NCBI GenBank assembly: GCA_019188255.1 | Contig: JAETXT010000001.1 | Location: 1,240,001-1,304,000 of the forward strand | Length of the DNA: 64,000 nt | Origin: Verticillium longisporum | Taxonomy: Eukaryota; Ascomycota; Sordariomycetes; Glomerellales; Plectosphaerellaceae | Direction: 5' to 3' | Shown here: positions 1-64,000 of the stretch, piece by piece | How the letters are laid out: each line of letters starts with the position of its first letter | Numbering within the stretch: the stretch's first letter is position 1 | Position numbers and translations under genes: made by a program | The notes under the pieces: generated by a model | Databases searched by the model: none | The model's input: only the letters and a program-made list of their open reading frames with translations | Told to the model about the DNA's origin: nothing

Positions 1-3000
1 AGTTACTCGGTGATCCGATTTTGAAGCTGTAACCCCCCATCATGTACCTTCAGTAGACCGCCAGCGGAATCAGACGGCAAGACAGCCTGCACACGCACCA
101 ACGTTCGAATCGGAAAGAACGTCATCTCTAACGGGAATATATGGGCTGGTGGTGGTGAAGCGTAGTTTGTATGACGATCCAAGTCTCAACTTGGCAAGGT
201 TCCTCGCAACGCCCCTTGCAAGGTCCCTTTTGCTTGAAAAGCAGTATGACATCAGTGAGGTGCGGAACTCCTGCATATGGGCTCTTTGGTGATGCAGGGA
301 AGCTGAAGGAAGGGACAGTTGGAGGGTCGGTTGGTCGAGCCAAGAAATACCCGAACGGTCGAGGTTCGTTGTTCAGGGGTCGATATCACTGACTACCGTC
401 CATAACGCTAGCATGGATCCGCTGCAGGGAAACGATCGCGATCGGCCGCATGTGGCGTGGTTGGTCGGGATGGCGCTGATTGGCGTCGCAAAGTAAAAGA
501 AGGCGTGTATGACGGAGATGCCAAGGGTACGATTAGTACGACGCGATATGCTGGGCATCTCGAACAGGAGAGTCAACTGAAGGCTTCCGGCTGGCATCCC
601 CAAGGCCGTGGTTCACGAGAGGTCACGCAGTCGGGAGCATGAGCGGCATCATTCCGGATGCATGGCGTTGGCGAGGCACAGACGGTCACAGCTGCGCAAT
701 GAAGGTCTGGCGAGAGTTGAGAGCAGTGGGATAAGAGACAGAGGAGCGACAAGCCGCCGAATGCTTCGCCGAGTCGGGGATCCCGCGCGCCGAACGACTG
801 GTGGTGTGTTAGCCTAGTGCCTGGGCGAGTCCACACAAGACGATCCTTCCTCCAAGCAGGGAGCGAAGTCTGTTTTTTTTTTTTTTTTTTTTTTTCCTCA
901 TTTCAATGTACGCAGTCAGCTCGTCCAGAATACCCCGCCAAGCTAGGAGGGCTGGTATCAGACCAAGAGCATGGCAATAAGATGAAGCATTCCCGTGGGA
1001 CGCGGCGTGGAAGCAGCGTGAGGACAATCATAGTGTTGGCCTACAACTGGCGCCTGTTTGATGGCGAATTTTGGCGCTGCTTGGAAGAGCATAAAGCGGT
1101 GAATGCGTTGGGGCGGTAATGCATTGGGGCGTTGAATGTCCATCACCAAGGCCAGGAAGGTGAAGATGGTTTCGCAGGTCAGGGGCGCGGAGAAGAAGCG
1201 GGCCTTGAGGAGAGCAGCGGTCCAGACTGTGAGCACCAACAGTGCTCGATATGTCTTTGGTGACGAATGCCGAGTGTTTGCCAAGCCACTCTGCAAAGGA
1301 TGAAGTGATTAGATGGCTTGGGATGGACAGGAGGTGGTTGGATGGTCGGTGGATGAGATGCTTTCGGACGTCGTAGTCGCTGCCATGTAGTGGTAGTGGG
1401 CCTTGGTGGGGACCGGCCCGCTTGTTGTGCCGATCCGTAGCGCGCCTCGCGCCTGCCCGCCGTCCACAGTGAATGAACGTTGGACTGCACCCCTCCGTCG
1501 ACCTCCCAGTCTATGGCGTTTCCCATCTCTCTCCTTGCAGAAACATCTTTGCTGCTTTCTTCACACCCAAGGAACCCCAACGAGCCAAGGATCATCTCCA
1601 CTCCACCACTTCACGCCTTCCTTCAGGCTCGAGAACGACCTCAGGCTCGAGAACGACCTCAGGCTCGAGAACGACCTCAGGCTCGAGAACGACCTCAGGC
1701 TCGAGAACGACCTCAGGCTCGAGAACGACCTCAGGCTCGAGAACGACCTCAGGCTCGAGAACGACGAGAACGACCTCATGTACAAGTGTACGCATGCTTA
1801 TCAAGGCTCTTTCCCTACACGAATGCAAAAGACCTCTCGGACACGACTGACCCTTGGTGCTTGGCCAACCACTAGCCCTCGAGAACCTCTTGGCTTCTTC
1901 GACTGGGACTACCATCCTTGCGTTTCTCAGCTGGCCGGGCTGCTTGGCCTTGCATTCGTCCCGTTCGCGACTATGCCGACCGGCACACGTCCGGCACATG
2001 TCTGCTCAATTTGTCTCCTGACGATAAGTATGACGTGAGCCAATGCTGACGTAGCCTTGGCAATGTTCGCCGCATTCACCATCTTCTCTACGAGCTCTTG
2101 ACTTCTGCCGTGGACAATGGGATATGCTGACTGCACGCCAGGAACGTCCTACAGCGACTCAGGGCACAAGAGAGGCAAACAAGGCCCCCGGTGCTAAGCA
2201 AGACCTTGGATGTTGTGGCCCATGCTCGACACTGGAAGCAGTTGACACCAGCCATGCTCAATACCCTTGACCGAGGCCACGTTCAATTAAGGTCCCTGGA
2301 GAAGAACCCGCCCGCCCGTCACCGAGCCTCCGCCACTTATCTAACGCCTCGATTGTCTCGGCCGCCGTCTTCGTAGCCTTCTGCGCCGGACCCGGACTAA
2401 ATCTGTAATGCCGCTCGGCTCGAGCTAGGTATTCGAACGGCCGCACTGCATTGGCCGTCCCTCTTATTGCAGTCTCACACTTATGTTTCGCAGCAAGCCC
2501 ACGTCGACTGACCATGGCCTGATATCCACCGCTCAACTTCCGCTCCTGTTGGTCGTCCTGCAGATTACCGGGCGAGGCGACTGGGGCGACTAGAAAGACT
2601 GGAGACATTTGGACAGACAGCCGGCCTGAGAAATCCTTTTTCCCGTCGGGCGCGCCGTCTCACGGTCTCGACTTCAGCGTTTCCACCGTTGGATCCACCA
2701 AAGTACTACCGTTTGGCACGCCAACTCGCCATGCCGCCCACGCACCCCTTCTCCATGGAGGACCAGGCCGCGTTGCGCTGATGGCCAGAGCCGTCACTGA
2801 GTGGAAACCCGTTCTCATGATCATCCGACATCCTGGGCTGGGGGAATGCGGTCCACTTCCCCATGCTCCACCAGGCATGGTTTCTTGGTATCACTCGGCG
2901 TGGTAAACGTCTTCGTCTGGTGTCTTGCCTGTCTCCTGTTTTCGTTAGTACCCCCCCGGTATGATCCCCAGACGACCCTTGACTTCTTAAGGGGTCATCC

Positions 3001-3237
3001 TCCCACCAGAATCTTCCTTGTTCCTTTGCTCTCTTCGTTCACAGTCTTCCCTGTTGTCGAGGTCTTCTTCGTTAAGCCCTCCACAAAATATCCTCATCAT
3101 CATACTTCATCTGCGACTCCTAGGCTAAATCGACACAGACAAGCCTTGACCCCAGGCTTGGGACGTGTTTCAGTCATGCCTCCCCACGTGTTGACGATGA
3201 GGCTCCGCCAACAGACCTCACCAACGACCACCCCCGC
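1..3237. other. Gene-poor stretch without a supported gene
   Basis: Short open frames occur on both strands but none shows a recognisable domain, a consistent intron pattern or a convincing start. A minus-strand frame at about 958-1296 has a hydrophobic stretch, but I could not link it to neighbouring exons. The stretch holds a poly-T tract near 870-895 and an 18-bp tandem array at 1624-1767. The last few hundred bases are the pyrimidine-rich upstream region of the sugar transporter gene. Confidence 0.5.
1624..1767. repeat. 18-bp tandem repeat, about 8 copies
   Basis: The unit CAGGCTCGAGAACGACCT is repeated eight times almost perfectly. The last copy carries an internal duplication of GAGAACGAC. 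The unit length is a multiple of three, so several frames on both strands stay open through the array and give long artificial-looking open frames (GSRTTS or RLENDL periodicities). No flanking coding signal supports translation, so I treat it as a minisatellite. Confidence 0.9.
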
Positions 3238-11352: not shown

Positions 11353-12692
11353 CTAGGCATGGCGCGTGTGTGCGACGGGAGGCAGAGGTTTGAGATTGTC
11401 GCTCAGCTCCCACTCCCAAGCCAGCAGGCTCCAGTTGAGCTCGCGCCTCCAGAAAAGACCAAGCCCGTTCCCGCCACCATACTCAGCGAGTTCAGGCATG
11501 CCCTCTCCGCGCTGCTCCGAGGCGATGCCGCCAGTCAGGGGCATGCGGTTGCAGAACACAATCTTGCCCATGCGCGAGTGAAGCATCGCCATCGAGCACT
11601 CCACACAGGGCTCGTGGGTGGTGTAAAGCTCGAGGCCGTGGCAGAGGTAGCCTTCTGAATTGGGGTGCTCCTCCTCGAAGAGAATCCGCTCCTCTTCCAG
11701 AAGAGGTTGGTCCTGGAAGCAGTCGAATTCCAGATTCGAGTGGACAAACGGCAGCCCAACCTTCTGCCGCTCGTGACGCACCAGCTTTTGGGCGACCATG
11801 CTCATAGCACGAAGCACGCAGTGGGCCATTGGATTGCCGGTGCCGGACCGCGACGGTTCCTGGTGCCAGCGGGCATCCCCAGCAAGACCAACAAGCTCAG
11901 ACTTTCCGTTTTCACGCTGAATAATGACGGCGCCCATGGGCTCGCCGATACCAGCGTCGTACGCAGAGCGTGCAACGCGGTGGGCGAGAGCCATCCAAAG
12001 TGACGTTTCGTCCTTGACAACATCAGAGGCGCGGGCTACCAAGGCGGGATGAGGCCCGAGAGGGTTGTTTTTGCGGTAGACGCAGGGCCAGAATTGCGAC
12101 GACCACATGGCAGCTTGAACCTGTGAGGTGGGGGCGACTAAAGGAATAGGCACCGACTCGAGGAAAGGCTCCTGGCCCATGCCCTCGACTTTGGCCAGCT
12201 CCTCAGTGAGAGCGTCTCGGCTGAATTCAGAGTCCTCGCAGAGCATAATATAGATCCAGCTCGACTTGCCCGTATGGATCTGTCGGCCCTCGGGCGTGGC
12301 GTTCATGAATTGCGTCTTGAGATGGGTGGGCAGGTCGGAAGGTTTTGCGCATCGCCGCAGGTGGAAGAGGCCCTTAGCCACGCCTTCCGGCAGCAGAGTA
12401 CGGAGCAACCTAGATACCATCAGTGACATGGTCACGGCGGTTGTAGCGATGACAGCTTACGTGATGACCTCGTTGGCAGACTTTGTCGGTGCTCTTGTGA
12501 TGAGGCCATGGACGATAGTATGGTCTTGCCGGACCTCAAGGGTGGTCTTCAGCGGGATGAGCACACCACCTCCAAGATGATCCGGTATGAGATCGTTGAT
12601 GAGGGGTGAGGCTGGACGGCATCGGGTCCCGTGAAGTCGGGAATTCGATCAGAGGATGCCTCTGAGGCAGCGGGGAAGTTGCTGCCGTTCAT
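11353..12692 (-). CDS. TAD3: tRNA-specific adenosine-34 deaminase, non-catalytic subunit Tad3/ADAT3
   Basis: Partner of Tad2 in converting A34 of tRNA anticodons to inosine; the pair is essential in yeast. Exons (minus) are 12692-12461 and 12409-11353 with a 51-nt intron, about 429 aa. The deaminase fold shows PMGAVII, then HCVLRAMS, where the catalytic Glu of the HAE motif is replaced by Val as is typical of ADAT3, and THEPCVECSMAML with the two zinc cysteines. The N-terminal segment LIPLKTTLEVRQD..ITRAPTKSANEVI matches the family. The reading frame from the ATG at 12692 fits only if one G/C is missing in the GGGG run at 12603-12606 (plus strand), joining DAVQPHP to LINDLIPDH. A real null is unlikely for an essential gene, so a consensus error is favoured. 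Confidence 0.88.
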
Positions 12693-54711: not shown

Positions 54712-54933
54712 ATGAGCTTCCAGCACATGACAGATACTAGCACAATTGCCAGGGACGACAAAAAAGACAGACACAAGGACAAGAACCACGGTGGGAAGAA
54801 AAAGATGGCCGAGGACATCATCATCGCCGCCAACCTCTGGCAGCCCACGCTCCGCGACCTCGACGATGTCGATGAGATGGTCAACAAGAAACGCCGTGCC
54901 CCCAACGTCGACCCCCGGACTGGCGAGGCTTAG
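54712..54933 (+). CDS. Hypothetical protein, frame continues past an in-frame TAG to 55215
   Basis: The ATG frame encodes 73 codons: a Lys/Asp/His-rich start (DDKKDRHKDKNHGGKKK) and a helical segment (MAEDIIIAANLWQPTLRDLD), then TAG at 54931-54933. The same frame then stays open for 93 more codons to TGA at 55213-55215, with a Pro-rich block (PPYTAPPSPTFEGSPT) and a Trp/Tyr-rich tail (GGWRYGWDEESGRWVAWYLI, GVLGIPQFPGINLGRGH) that looks like protein. Full length would be about 167 aa. I do not recognise a family. It could be a short real protein plus coincidence, a nonsense allele, or a transcript whose UAG is recoded. Confidence 0.5.
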   Translation: MSFQHMTDTSTIARDDKKDRHKDKNHGGKKKMAEDIIIAANLWQPTLRDLDDVDEMVNKKRRAPNVDPRTGEA

Positions 54934-60618: not shown

Positions 60619-63098
60619 ATGGGACCAGCTCCCCGCACCCCGCGGTCCCGTCGAATTCGGGGGCTGGCCAGACTAGCCCACCCCTTTGACAGTCCAGCCG
60701 ACTCGGGCTACGGTTCCTCTGAGTGCTCTTCGCCGGAGAAGAGAGCCCACCAGGACGATGTCCCAGAATTCCCTCCTTACTGTCTCAACTACGACTTTGT
60801 GTGTGACGGCTCCGGATCTTCAGATAAGCACGAGTCTGATCACGAGTCTGATAAAGAGCCCGAGGTTGAACCCACGCCCACGAGAAGACAGACTCGAACC
60901 AGATTGCGTACCGGCATTCCCGCAAACTTTCACTCCAACAAGGTGGTCCGGCCAAAACCGAATCGACAATATACAAAAGGGTCCCTGAACCTGCCAGACC
61001 GCTTCATACCACGATGGAAAGCGTCCGCACCCATCTCTATCACGTACCGTACCTCCAAGCTCGTCGATGACTTGACAGCCTCTGAGAGGCTTTTACGCAA
61101 CCATCATGCCTCTCCTGACGTCTTTCTGCACCGAGCGACCGCCAATGCCCCCCCTTTGGCCTCAGACTTCCGCTACGTCTCCCGCATGGAAGAGGCGCCA
61201 AGTAGGAGATTTCAGCACCTGCCCCACACTCGAAACGGCTCGCTAATAGCCACCCAAGTAGGAACGACAATCGTCCCTATGCCGGAGAACCGACGCATCT
61301 TCAGTACGAGACAGCTCAGCCACGGTACAGTTTAGGCTATCGGTGGCGTGGCTCCCAGTGGCACGGCCATCGACAGTGGTCGTGGCCACCTCATTCGAAC
61401 TGGTACCAGCGCTCGATTTCACTATAATGCATTTCCGAGTCTGAAGAACTCGACATATCCGAGAGACGTCGAACAACATGAAGCTCGCCTTGCATATGCC
61501 CTGAACATTGATCAGGCATCAAAGATTTTTGGTTTCAGTGACAAGCTGCTCAATCCCCCACACACTGGTATGCAGACAATGGGACGCAAAAGAAAAACGA
61601 CGTGGAACGGTACAGAATGGATTGAACCACATCACTCCGGGAGTAGGTTGGCTTCCTATTCCTCTCAGACTATCAGACTGACCATACTCGGAGCAGGGGC
61701 ACGGGCTTCTCGAATCGAGCGCAGGCTGCCTTCAGCCCCGTTCCGTGTGCTTGACGCCCCCGATCTCCGCGATGACTACTACTGCTCAACGCTGGCCTAC
61801 TCGGGGACTTGGAACGTCCTTGCGGTAGGGCTGGGAGGCACGCTGTACTCATGGTCTAGTCGTCACGGAGTCATGCCCGTAGTGCGTGGGCCCGACTCCC
61901 CCTGGCTGACTTCGGTTTCTTTCTCCTCGGAAGAGGGAGGCAAAGGAATACTTGCCTACAGTCGATCGAGTGGCTACTTTGCCCTGACGTCTCTCAATAG
62001 TCATCTTCCACGCTTCGAGATGACGCACCCGTTCCCGATCTGCTGTGTCAGCTAGCGGCCGACGTGCACACTGCGGCTGTCGAAGCATCCCACAAACCCG
62101 CCACGGAGGTCTCCACTGAGGACTTGATCGTAGGCGACGTCTTGGGACATATTTACTACTACGTTGTGGAGTGGCCAGAAGCGTGGGAAGTGGCCCGCGA
62201 TGACTGGCCTGGCTCCATTACGCTGGTAGCTAAGATTTCTGCCCATGCTTTGCAGATCTGTGCATTAGTCTGGTCCCCCAACGGTCAAGTCTTTGCGACT
62301 GGTGCCAATGACAACTATTGCTGCTTGTTCGAGGTCAACAAGATCCTACAACCACAACGACACCAGGGTTCAGTCTCGCCGACGGTACGGAAGCGGAGGC
62401 AGTCATCGGAAAGCATCGGCAGTGAGTTGTATGACCTGCTAATACAAAATGAAGGAAGGGATGAAGAGGCATTTCAACTTCTTAGAGACGGTACCAGCAT
62501 CCGGACCGTCCGAACCTCGCCTGATGAGGTGCCGCAGTTCGGACCCGGTTCAGAGACGCATCGCTGGATCCACAGCGCCGCCGTCAAGGCGATTGCCTTT
62601 TGTCCATGGCAGGACGGCCTCGTTGCGACAGGGGGCGGCTCCAATGACCGATGCATACACTTCTTCCACACCAAGACCGGCACAGCTCTCGCAACCATTG
62701 CATGTGCGGCGCAGGTGACATCACTCATATGGTCCACGAACCGGCGTGAGATTGCTGCCACTTTTGGCTATTCACAACCCGAACATCTGTTTCGTATTGC
62801 CGTGTTCAGTTGGCCTTCGTGCGAGATGGTCGGCGTGGTCAAGTGGGAAAAGGGCCACAGAGCGCTCAGCGCCATTGCGTACCCTGGCGGTCCCAAGGGA
62901 CTGTGTCGTGACCGAGCAAGAGAGCGCCCAGCAGAGGAAGGCGGCATTGTCGTGGCATCGAGCGACAATACCATCAAGTTTCACGAAGTCTGGCAAGCGG
63001 CGAAGAGGGTCATGGTGGGAGGCAAGGGAATGCTAGGAGGAAGTGATATCCTCGAGGGACTTGAGGGCATGTACAAAGAGGGAGATATCATTCGCTAA
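60619..63098 (+). CDS. AMA1: Meiosis-type APC/C activator (Cdc20/Fizzy family, Ama1-like) with two in-frame TAG codons
   Basis: WD40 substrate-recruiting activator of the anaphase-promoting complex, of the type used in meiosis and spore formation. About 826 codons from the ATG at 60619. An N-terminal disordered region has the C-box DRFIP (about residues 127-131) and ERLLRNH. WD-repeat blades run from LAYSGTWNVLAVGLGGTLYSW to the end. The last two residues are Ile-Arg, the IR tail that docks on the APC/C. The frame is interrupted by TAG at 61333-61335 (codon 239, in GTV-stop-AIGGVAPSGT) and TAG at 62053-62055 (codon 479, in ICCVS-stop-RPTCTLR). Both fit Trp, the second matching a WD-blade SWRP pattern. 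One missing C at 62097-62099 is then needed to reach TEVSTEDLIVGD. Everything else is conserved, so this is not a decayed gene. Confidence 0.8.
61320..61346 (+). other. Predicted hairpin presenting the first AMA1 TAG in its loop
   Basis: Bases 61320-61327 (CCACGGTA) pair with 61338-61346 through eight pairs, one a G-U wobble, with a single bulged G. This leaves a ten-base loop CAGTTTAGGC that holds the TAG. An alternative perfect seven-pair stem (61318-61324 with 61347-61353) also keeps the TAG in the loop. Manual pairing only; no energy was computed. Confidence 0.5.
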
Positions 63099-64000
63099 GG
63101 GGTGATGAAGTCGCGTCTCTTTGATCAGATATTCTTTACAGCGCACGCGTACTGAGCCTTGGATGGAGAAGCAAGCTTGTTAGGAGTAAGAATGATATAG
63201 TGTATTCGTACCTGCTCAGCCGCGCTTCCTCTCCGTTGTGTCCTTCTGAAATATACAAAGGCAACCGTCTACTAGCAGACATACACAGGTGAACAGGAGG
63301 CAAGAGTGCAGAGGGTACTTAAGTGTAAATTTCTGAAAACTGGCCGCCAACGAGGAAGGCGGGCTGCCTGGCTAGGAGCTCAGATCAACCCTCGTTGGTG
63401 GGGTGGAGTTTGTTGTGGCATTTATATAGATTCACCTCATAGGCACCACGTTCAATTCCCGCCAGCGCCTATTCCAAAAAAACAAATGACCGACAACTCT
63501 GATTCACCGCGACGCTGATTCACCGCAACCGATGCAGACTCACCGCAACCGATGCAGACTCACCGCAACCGAGCAGACTCACCGCGACCGACGCAGACTC
63601 ACCGCAGCCGAGACGCAGACTCACCGCAGCCGAGACGCAGACTCACCGCGACTGACGACAAGAGATGTAGGTTGGGGCAACAGACGCTGGGGCCCCTTCC
63701 GAACTCTTTTGTATTTCGACCCTGCTGCGAAAGAAGCAAGCAACATGTTATGTTTCACGGCAGGAATAGCATGATGTACAATGTTTGCCGATCCTCGCGC
63801 TCGGGCGAAGAACAGCCTGCCATGTTACTACCATGTATACCTGAGATGCTGAAAACGGCCGACTGGCAGTGTGATATCAAAGACCAAGAAACAAAACAAA
63901 AGATCCCTGCGATGTGCGCCAGACTCCTAGCCATGCTGTGTGTAGGGGATTTGGGGAGGGTAGGATAGGGGGTACGTGTGTATGCTGCGTATAGGGCCAG
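63099..64000. other. 3' flank of AMA1 and tandem-repeat DNA
   Basis: No supported gene. It holds the tandem array at 63500-63655 and, before it, a short segment with a tRNA B-box-like GTTCAATTCC at about 63449 followed by an A-run. Open frames across the array lack motifs. Confidence 0.45.
63500..63655. repeat. Tandem repeat with core GACTCACCGC, about 8 copies
   Basis: The core GA(C/T)TCACCGC recurs eight times, followed by variable AACCGATGCA, GACCGACGCA or AGCCGAGACGCA spacers, with unit length about 15-21 bp. Copies become more alike toward the middle. No gene is supported across it. Confidence 0.88.

What the first reader, a model, noticed from the sequence alone, without database searches (positions are those of the whole stretch)
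61333..62055. AMA1 carries two in-frame TAG codons at positions fitting Trp: candidate A-to-I edited stops in a meiosis gene
Seen: the Ama1-like frame is interrupted twice, both times by TAG (61333-61335 and 62053-62055), with conserved family sequence on both sides. The second lies in a WD-blade pattern where Trp is expected (VS-W-RP). The first sits in the 10-base loop of a manually found hairpin. Known: in Fusarium and Neurospora, A-to-I mRNA editing in sexual tissues turns UAG into UGG (Trp) and restores full-length proteins (PUK1-type events), with editing favoured in hairpin loops after U. I recall AMA1 being among reported targets but cannot confirm it here. Inferred: the gene makes full-length Ama1 only during sexual development. 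Two stops in one transcript make unedited or partly edited mRNA inert, a tight developmental lock on an APC/C activator.
Basis: partly seen in the sequence, partly recalled or inferred. Interest (0 to 1): 0.88.

Follow-up and report, generated by a model that had tools for sequence, protein, structure and literature searches.

The report
Editable stop codons in Verticillium AMA1
A meiosis gene in a hybrid plant-infecting fungus, likely Verticillium longisporum, carries two stop codons inside its coding sequence in both of its copies, yet the protein sequence beyond them has been conserved, so the stops are likely erased by RNA editing, a process tied to sexual reproduction in related fungi, although the genus has no known sexual stage.

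Summary
The two in-frame TAG codons (61333-61335, 62053-62055) are real. The gene is an AMA1 orthologue. The genome (72.01 Mb, 16 contigs) fits the hybrid Verticillium longisporum PD589 and holds a second AMA1 copy with both TAGs. Relatives have Trp at site 1 (98 of 103 with a residue) and Trp or Phe at site 2 (78 and 37 of 116). Between the copies, coding sequence beyond the first TAG is under purifying selection (32 synonymous, 19 non-synonymous; pN/pS 0.19). A V. nonalfalfae gene model skips the two stretches that hold the TAGs. Introns, read errors and old pseudogenes explain this poorly. Premature-stop correction by A-to-I editing, published for Fusarium AMA1, explains it well; no RNA was seen, so editing is inferred. 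A second meiosis gene, SPO22, also has a TAG where Trp scores best. Interest lies in the host: a genus without known sex that conserved an apparently editing-dependent meiosis gene.

The parts
60619..63098 (+). AMA1 coding region, ATG to TAA, as assembled: frame 1 to about 62106, frame 3 after it
   Evidence: Pfam WD40_CDC20-Fz 179 bits (below its cut-off of 200) on the read-through second copy
61333..61335 (+). TAG 1 (codon 239), Trp-conserved position between the C-box-like motif and the propeller
   Evidence: Trp in 98 of 103 homologues with a residue there; also in L007 at 1772
62053..62055 (+). TAG 2 (codon 478 of the second copy), at the end of a predicted propeller strand (473-478)
   Evidence: Trp 78, Phe 37, Leu 1 of 116 homologues with a residue; L007 at 2489; model pLDDT 93 for residues 471-480
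62103..62112 (+). frame change: window copy one base shorter than the homoeologue; real lesion or assembly noise
61320..61346 (+). local hairpin with the TAG 1 adenosine in its loop
61643..61696 (+). predicted intron, 54 nt, GT...AG, frame-neutral, holds neither TAG; matches extra residues absent from the orthologues compared
   Evidence: coordinates; orthologues lack these residues
61202..61258 (+). possible optional intron, 57 nt, GT...AG, frame-neutral; absent from protein P0237
11353..12456 (-). Tad3-like deaminase subunit (the non-catalytic partner of the published editing enzyme in F. graminearum); HCV where an active deaminase has H-x-E
   Evidence: sequence; PF00383, 37.8 bits; the H-x-E motif is recalled

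Best explanation
Both copies of AMA1 in this hybrid Verticillium genome (likely V. longisporum) carry two in-frame TAG codons at positions where relatives have tryptophan or another aromatic residue, and these stops are likely corrected to UGG by A-to-I mRNA editing at an editing-competent, presumably sexual, stage. Shown: the codons, their presence in both copies, the residue in relatives, and selection on the protein beyond the stops. Inferred: the editing itself, its enzyme (Tad2-Tad3 with the cofactor Ame1), and its stage. Without editing, translation would end at residue 238, leaving an N-terminal piece with the C-box-like motif but no WD40 propeller and no Ile-Arg tail, so hardly an APC/C activator; with only the first stop edited, the product would end early in the propeller. 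[quoted passage not shown] graminearum needs for normal ascospores (its meiosis itself is reported normal without it), would be made only where editing runs. The parental lineages are inferred to have made full-length protein for most of the time since they separated; whether the present hybrid still can is open.
For: Both TAGs in both homoeologues. Trp in 98 of 103 at site 1; Trp/Phe in 115 of 116 at site 2. pN/pS 0.098 between the two TAGs (17 synonymous, 5 non-synonymous), 0.30 after TAG 2 (15 and 14), 0.194 for everything after TAG 1 (32 and 19; binomial p 9e-9). The V. nonalfalfae model P0001 skips both sites, and those skipped stretches evolve like coding sequence (7 synonymous and 5 non-synonymous, p 0.01; 7 and 0, p 7e-5); false introns are a reported annotation artefact at edited stops (PMC11169179, passages; also PMC4817773). 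In the family's reading frame all stops before the terminal TAA are TAG in both copies (2 in the window copy, 3 in the second), each with U before and G after the A. AMA1 is an edited gene in F. graminearum. Machinery: Tad3-like gene in this window and on C9; DUF726 genes with the MV pair reported for Ame1 on C8 and C16 (signature from PMC11087585, passages). SPO22, the other meiosis gene named with AMA1 in that paper, has one copy found here, with a TAG at L011 2347-2349; of seven residues tried there, Trp gives the best SPO22 profile score (172.0 bits against 168.1-169.0).
Against: No RNA data were available. The window copy has a further frame change and the second copy a third TAG at a Glu-to-stop position that is not Trp in relatives. 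Site 2 is not in a stable hairpin loop (2 of 7 folds) and lacks the preferred +2 G; site 1 lacks A/G at +3 and +4 (preferences), and with 30-base flanks the window site 1 is in a stem. The C16 copy of the Ame1-type gene and the C1 copy of MAT1-1-1 also look frame-broken. Both MAT alpha-box loci found are MAT1-1, so mating within the hybrid is not expected. 20 of 28 polarised amino-acid changes fall on the second copy's branch, which could mean relaxed constraint there. The SPO22 position lies outside the best-scoring profile stretch (residues 1-246; the TAG is residue 283), so that support is weak.
Confidence: 0.72

Rival explanations
1. AMA1 is a decaying pseudogene in an asexual lineage; the stops are ordinary nonsense mutations.
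For: No sexual stage described for the genus; window copy frame-broken, second copy with a third TAG; more derived changes on the second copy's branch.
Against: The two TAGs are shared by both copies, yet sequence beyond them stayed under purifying selection; no TAA or TGA among 825 codons of the second copy; both on Trp/aromatic columns. It may still be true of the present hybrid.
Confidence: 0.13
2. Introns remove both TAGs in the normal mRNA, as the V. nonalfalfae gene model says.
For: P0001 has such a model.
Against: The skipped stretches hold conserved family residues (Trp 98 of 103) and change mainly at synonymous sites (7:5 and 7:0). The better-looking intron, 61643-61696, holds neither TAG.
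Confidence: 0.05
3. Translational readthrough of UAG, or vegetative editing as reported for CHE1, makes full-length protein without a sexual stage.
For: 33 hyphal editing sites including one premature stop are in print for F. graminearum (PMC11169179, passages); readthrough would also explain the selection.
Against: Readthrough does not explain why both stops sit on Trp/aromatic columns; reported hyphal editing is rare and averages under 5.5%.
Confidence: 0.09
4. The TAGs are sequencing errors.
For: The likely source assembly is Nanopore-based (PMC8406199, section read), and one-base indels are frequent between the copies.
Against: The same two substitutions stand in two separately assembled chromosomes, P0237 from another source ends exactly at TAG 1, and P0001 avoids both sites.
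Confidence: 0.01

Closest known systems
F. graminearum FgAMA1 (FGRRES_10728), premature-stop correction editing
   Same: Same gene; in-frame UAG corrected to UGG in perithecia; automated annotation avoids the site with a false intron.
   Different: Here two stops, at other Trp codons than the one that models of the F. sambucinum group appear to skip (near the Trp of TWLTSV; inferred, not read in a paper; group names recalled); host genus without known sex; no RNA proof.
F. graminearum PUK1 (UAG UAG) and its N. crassa orthologue
   Same: UAG codons inside a conserved frame; in F. graminearum two in one transcript, both needing correction.
   Different: PUK1 stops are tandem and shown edited at 91 and 99% (PMC11156358); here they lie 720 bases apart and editing is untested.
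Cdc20/Cdh1 APC/C activators (best PDB match 4ui9 chain R, 7e-33)
   Same: C-box-like motif, WD40 propeller, Ile-Arg tail.
   Different: Meiosis-specific Ama1 branch; long N-terminal part; last C-box Arg is Trp here; interrupted frame.

Membership tests
Premature-stop correction (PUK1-type) A-to-I edited genes | UAG inside conserved coding sequence at a Trp position | tested here: met
   (site 2 is Trp or Phe)
Premature-stop correction (PUK1-type) A-to-I edited genes | U at -1 and G/A at +1 of the edited A | tested here: met
   UUUAGG and GCUAGC contexts
Premature-stop correction (PUK1-type) A-to-I edited genes | Edited A in a hairpin loop (about 62% of F. graminearum sites) | tested here: inconclusive
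   site 1 yes in 5 of 7 (window) and 7 of 7 (second copy) folds, site 2 in 2 of 7 in each; at 30-base flanks window site 1 is in a stem
Premature-stop correction (PUK1-type) A-to-I edited genes | Downstream sequence selected as protein | tested here: met
Premature-stop correction (PUK1-type) A-to-I edited genes | A-to-G change in sexual-stage RNA, absent in hyphae | not testable with these tools
   no RNA reads on hand
Premature-stop correction (PUK1-type) A-to-I edited genes | Tad2, Tad3 and Ame1 present | tested here: inconclusive
   Tad3-like and Ame1-type genes found; which PF00383 hit is Tad2 was not resolved; C16 Ame1-type copy looks frame-broken
Ama1 APC/C activators | C-box (DRFIPxR-like), Cdc20-type WD40 propeller, C-terminal Ile-Arg (motif definitions recalled) | tested here: met
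   D127 R128 and I824 R825 nearly invariant, but the C-box reads DRFIPRW in both copies; WD40_CDC20-Fz 179 bits, under the curated 200; propeller strands 391-790 in the model
Pseudogene | Neutral evolution beyond the first stop | tested here: not met
   pN/pS 0.194, p 9e-9; says nothing on the time since hybridisation

The most novel reading that the evidence does not exclude
Verticillium has kept an AMA1 gene that can only work through sexual-stage mRNA editing, with two stops to be cleared, and selection held the protein beyond those stops in both parental lineages; this would be a molecular record of cryptic sex in a genus regarded as asexual, and A-to-G at 61334 and 62054 would be a sensitive marker for catching it.
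Probability: 0.4. Interest if true: 0.82.

Novelty: new variant of a known kind. Interest (0 to 1): 0.6.

Why it matters
Whether Verticillium has sex is an old dispute, argued from mating-type genes, recombination and intact meiosis genes (PMC4152335 and PMC4226480, passages; PMC11077750, listing only). PMC4226480 lists a V. dahliae AMA1 orthologue, VDAG_01235, and the term 'stop codon' does not occur in it. A meiosis gene that apparently needs sexual-stage editing, yet stayed under selection past its stops, is a different kind of evidence and gives one cheap test: look for A-to-G at two positions in any RNA data. It also suggests that different lineages place the stop at different Trp codons of the same gene, as if editing-dependence of AMA1 were gained repeatedly (three models of the Fusarium solani group skip site 1, Colletotrichum camelliae skips site 2, F. 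sambucinum-group models skip a third Trp, indirect).

Tried and rejected
Repeat-induced point mutation as source of the TAGs: dinucleotide indices of both copies (TpA/ApT 0.64 and 0.70) are near that of the whole window (0.59), and 10 CAA, 10 CAG and 17 CGA codons of the second copy stand unmutated.

Reading the window frame change as proof of recent gene death: dropped, because of 15 other stretches compared, 10 also show frame-breaking length differences (two of the 10 are overlapping pieces of one gene), several in genes that look essential, though some may lie in introns or outside the true coding part; gene names there are recalled by eye.

A first placing of the SPO22 TAG at profile position 247, still in the notebook, was wrong: one search showed no stop there, and one search put it at residue 283 (L011 2347-2349). 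The Trp preference was then retested with seven residues.

Assigning window and C9 copies to parents A1 and D3: not resolved. The V. nonalfalfae protein is slightly closer to the window copy.

Search with the C-terminal piece returned 1128 hits, of which 120 are listed; none of those listed is a named Verticillium protein. The RID/DNA methylase search showed no stops in the matched stretches. PMC10776026, which may treat the evolution of stop-correction sites, is not held. Paper searches in the held library: Verticillium with A-to-I, RNA editing and stop codon, 1 paper, a Fusarium review (AMA1 passages read); Verticillium dahliae with RNA editing and AMA1, 4 papers, one of them looked at in passages, the others off topic by title and not opened; Colletotrichum with premature stop codon and A-to-I editing, none; VDAG_01235, 1 paper (passages). 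None of what was seen reports these sites.

Full report
What is there. The window's last 3.4 kb hold an AMA1 orthologue on the + strand: ATG 60619, TAA 63096-63098. From the ATG, frame 1 meets TAG at 61333, TAG at 62053 and TGA at 62125. Family sequence runs through both TAGs.

Where it comes from. The assembly holding the window is 72,013,526 bases in 16 contigs. That fits V. longisporum PD589, a hybrid of parents A1 and D3 (72.0 Mb, 16 pseudochromosomes; PMC8406199, sections 5 and 16 read). The best-scoring protein match is V. nonalfalfae (P0001), and MAT1-1-type alpha boxes occur twice, as reported for V. longisporum (PMC3063834, passages). The naming is an inference.

The second copy. AMA1 has one close homoeologue, C9:3024530-3025531 for the matched part, in a syntenic block that spans the window at 88-93% identity. 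It has TAG 1 and TAG 2 at the same codons, an unbroken frame across the place where the window copy changes frame, and a third TAG (L007 2903) where the window copy and V. nonalfalfae have Glu. So the two shared TAGs are most simply older than the split of the copies; the frame change and the third TAG each belong to one copy.

What stands there in relatives. In an alignment with 120 listed homologues (of 152 found), site 1 is Trp in 98, another residue in 5 and a gap in 17; site 2 is Trp in 78, Phe in 37, Leu in 1, gap in 4; the third site is a variable linker position, Trp in none. Several models lack the sites: V. nonalfalfae skips both, three Fusarium solani-group models skip site 1, Colletotrichum camelliae keeps Trp at site 1 and skips site 2, and F. 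sambucinum-group models skip a third Trp (group names recalled). Some of the 17 gaps at site 1 are fragments. False introns at such stops are a described annotation artefact (PMC11169179, passages). This is indirect: no DNA of these species was on hand.

Selection beyond the stops. Comparing the copies codon by codon with TAG counted as Trp: codons 1-238, 23 synonymous and 19 non-synonymous changes; 240-477, 17 and 5; 479-825, 15 and 14; all after TAG 1, 32 and 19 (pN/pS 0.194, p 9e-9). The last 165 codons have 4 and 0. Eleven non-synonymous changes crowd into codons 601-660; the nine that could be polarised in codons 606-652 lie on the second copy's branch. The predicted intron 61643-61696 was counted as coding in these sums. 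Within the window, 98 stops have at least 70 open codons on both sides; 61333 alone is also a stop in the homoeologue with pN/pS under 0.3 on both sides. TAG 2 could not enter that scan because of the frame change. This comparison is the core of the argument: it implies that ribosomes passed these stops for most of the time since the copies diverged.

Context of the stops. Both A's have U before and G after. Site 1 also has U at -2 and G at +2, but C and U at +3 and +4; site 2 has C at +2 and G at +3 and +4 (preferences). Folding supports site 1 in most flank sizes, though not at 30 bases in the window copy, and hardly site 2. In the published models sequence matters more than structure (PMC9600606, passages).

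Structure. The predicted model is poor overall (mean pLDDT 59, 37 sequences) but good over the propeller, residues 391-755 apart from a linker. Residue 478 closes a strand there; residue 239 lies in a low-confidence N-terminal stretch despite being nearly invariant. Truncation at TAG 1 would keep the C-box-like DRFIPRW (its last Arg is Trp here) and lose propeller and Ile-Arg tail; truncation at TAG 2 would keep a small part of the propeller.

Machinery and other targets. The window itself encodes a Tad3-like deaminase (11353-12456, minus) with Val where the catalytic Glu would be, as stated for FgTad3 (PMC11156358); its homoeologue is on C9. DUF726 hits form three pairs; one pair (C8, C16) shows MV near the reported Ame1 position, one residue nearer the nucleophile Ser than in the paper's numbering; the C16 copy looks frame-broken. 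SPO22, reported edited alongside AMA1 in F. graminearum, was found once here, with a TAG at L011 2347-2349; Trp there scores 172.0 bits against 168.1-169.0 for six other residues, but the place is outside the best profile stretch, so this is a lead.

P0237, a 219-residue protein from environmental or archive assemblies (8 members, 5 contigs), matches the window's N-terminal part in 218 of 219 residues, the odd one being the junction residue, ends exactly at TAG 1 and lacks 57 bases bounded by GT and AG. If it derives from RNA, it is an unedited spliced transcript; its source could not be determined.

Judgement. Editing-dependent AMA1 is known. New here are two stops in one AMA1, at codons that other lineages seem to use singly, in a genus without known sex, with selection data that imply passage of the stops. 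Whether the present hybrid still makes the protein is open: it carries MAT1-1 twice, and both copies have one more interruption, of which the window's may be assembly noise.

Noticed in passing
L011 2347-2349 (C15:224588-224590): SPO22/ZIP4-like gene with an in-frame TAG where Trp gives the best profile score of seven residues tried; only one copy found in this two-copy genome.
   Followed up: partly
window 11353-12456 (-): Tad3-like deaminase subunit gene in the same 64 kb as AMA1; its C9 homoeologue has a TAA just upstream of a likely start Met.
   Followed up: partly
L010 (C1:6850152-6850439) and L009 (C10:4214545-4214976): Two MAT1-1-1 alpha-box genes; the C1 copy appears frame-broken, and HMG boxes lie a little over 2 kb away at both loci.
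   Followed up: partly
L007 about 2870-3020: Cluster of substitutions, mostly non-synonymous, including the third TAG, in a linker of the second AMA1 copy; the polarised ones are on that copy's branch.
   Followed up: partly
window 24066 and 24087: Two one-base length differences 21 bases apart in a Nup93-like gene (name recalled by eye), suggesting residual indel errors in the assembly.
   Followed up: partly
window 54931-54933 (+): Another TAG conserved in the homoeologue with moderately low pN/pS on both sides (0.44 and 0.32).
   Followed up: no
window 63480-63650: Imperfect tandem repeats (about 20 bases, ACTCACCGC...) downstream of AMA1, seen by eye.
   Followed up: no
L013 (C1:4046443-4047501): DUF726 gene copy with a TAA inside the matched domain, perhaps an intron; not checked.
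   Followed up: no
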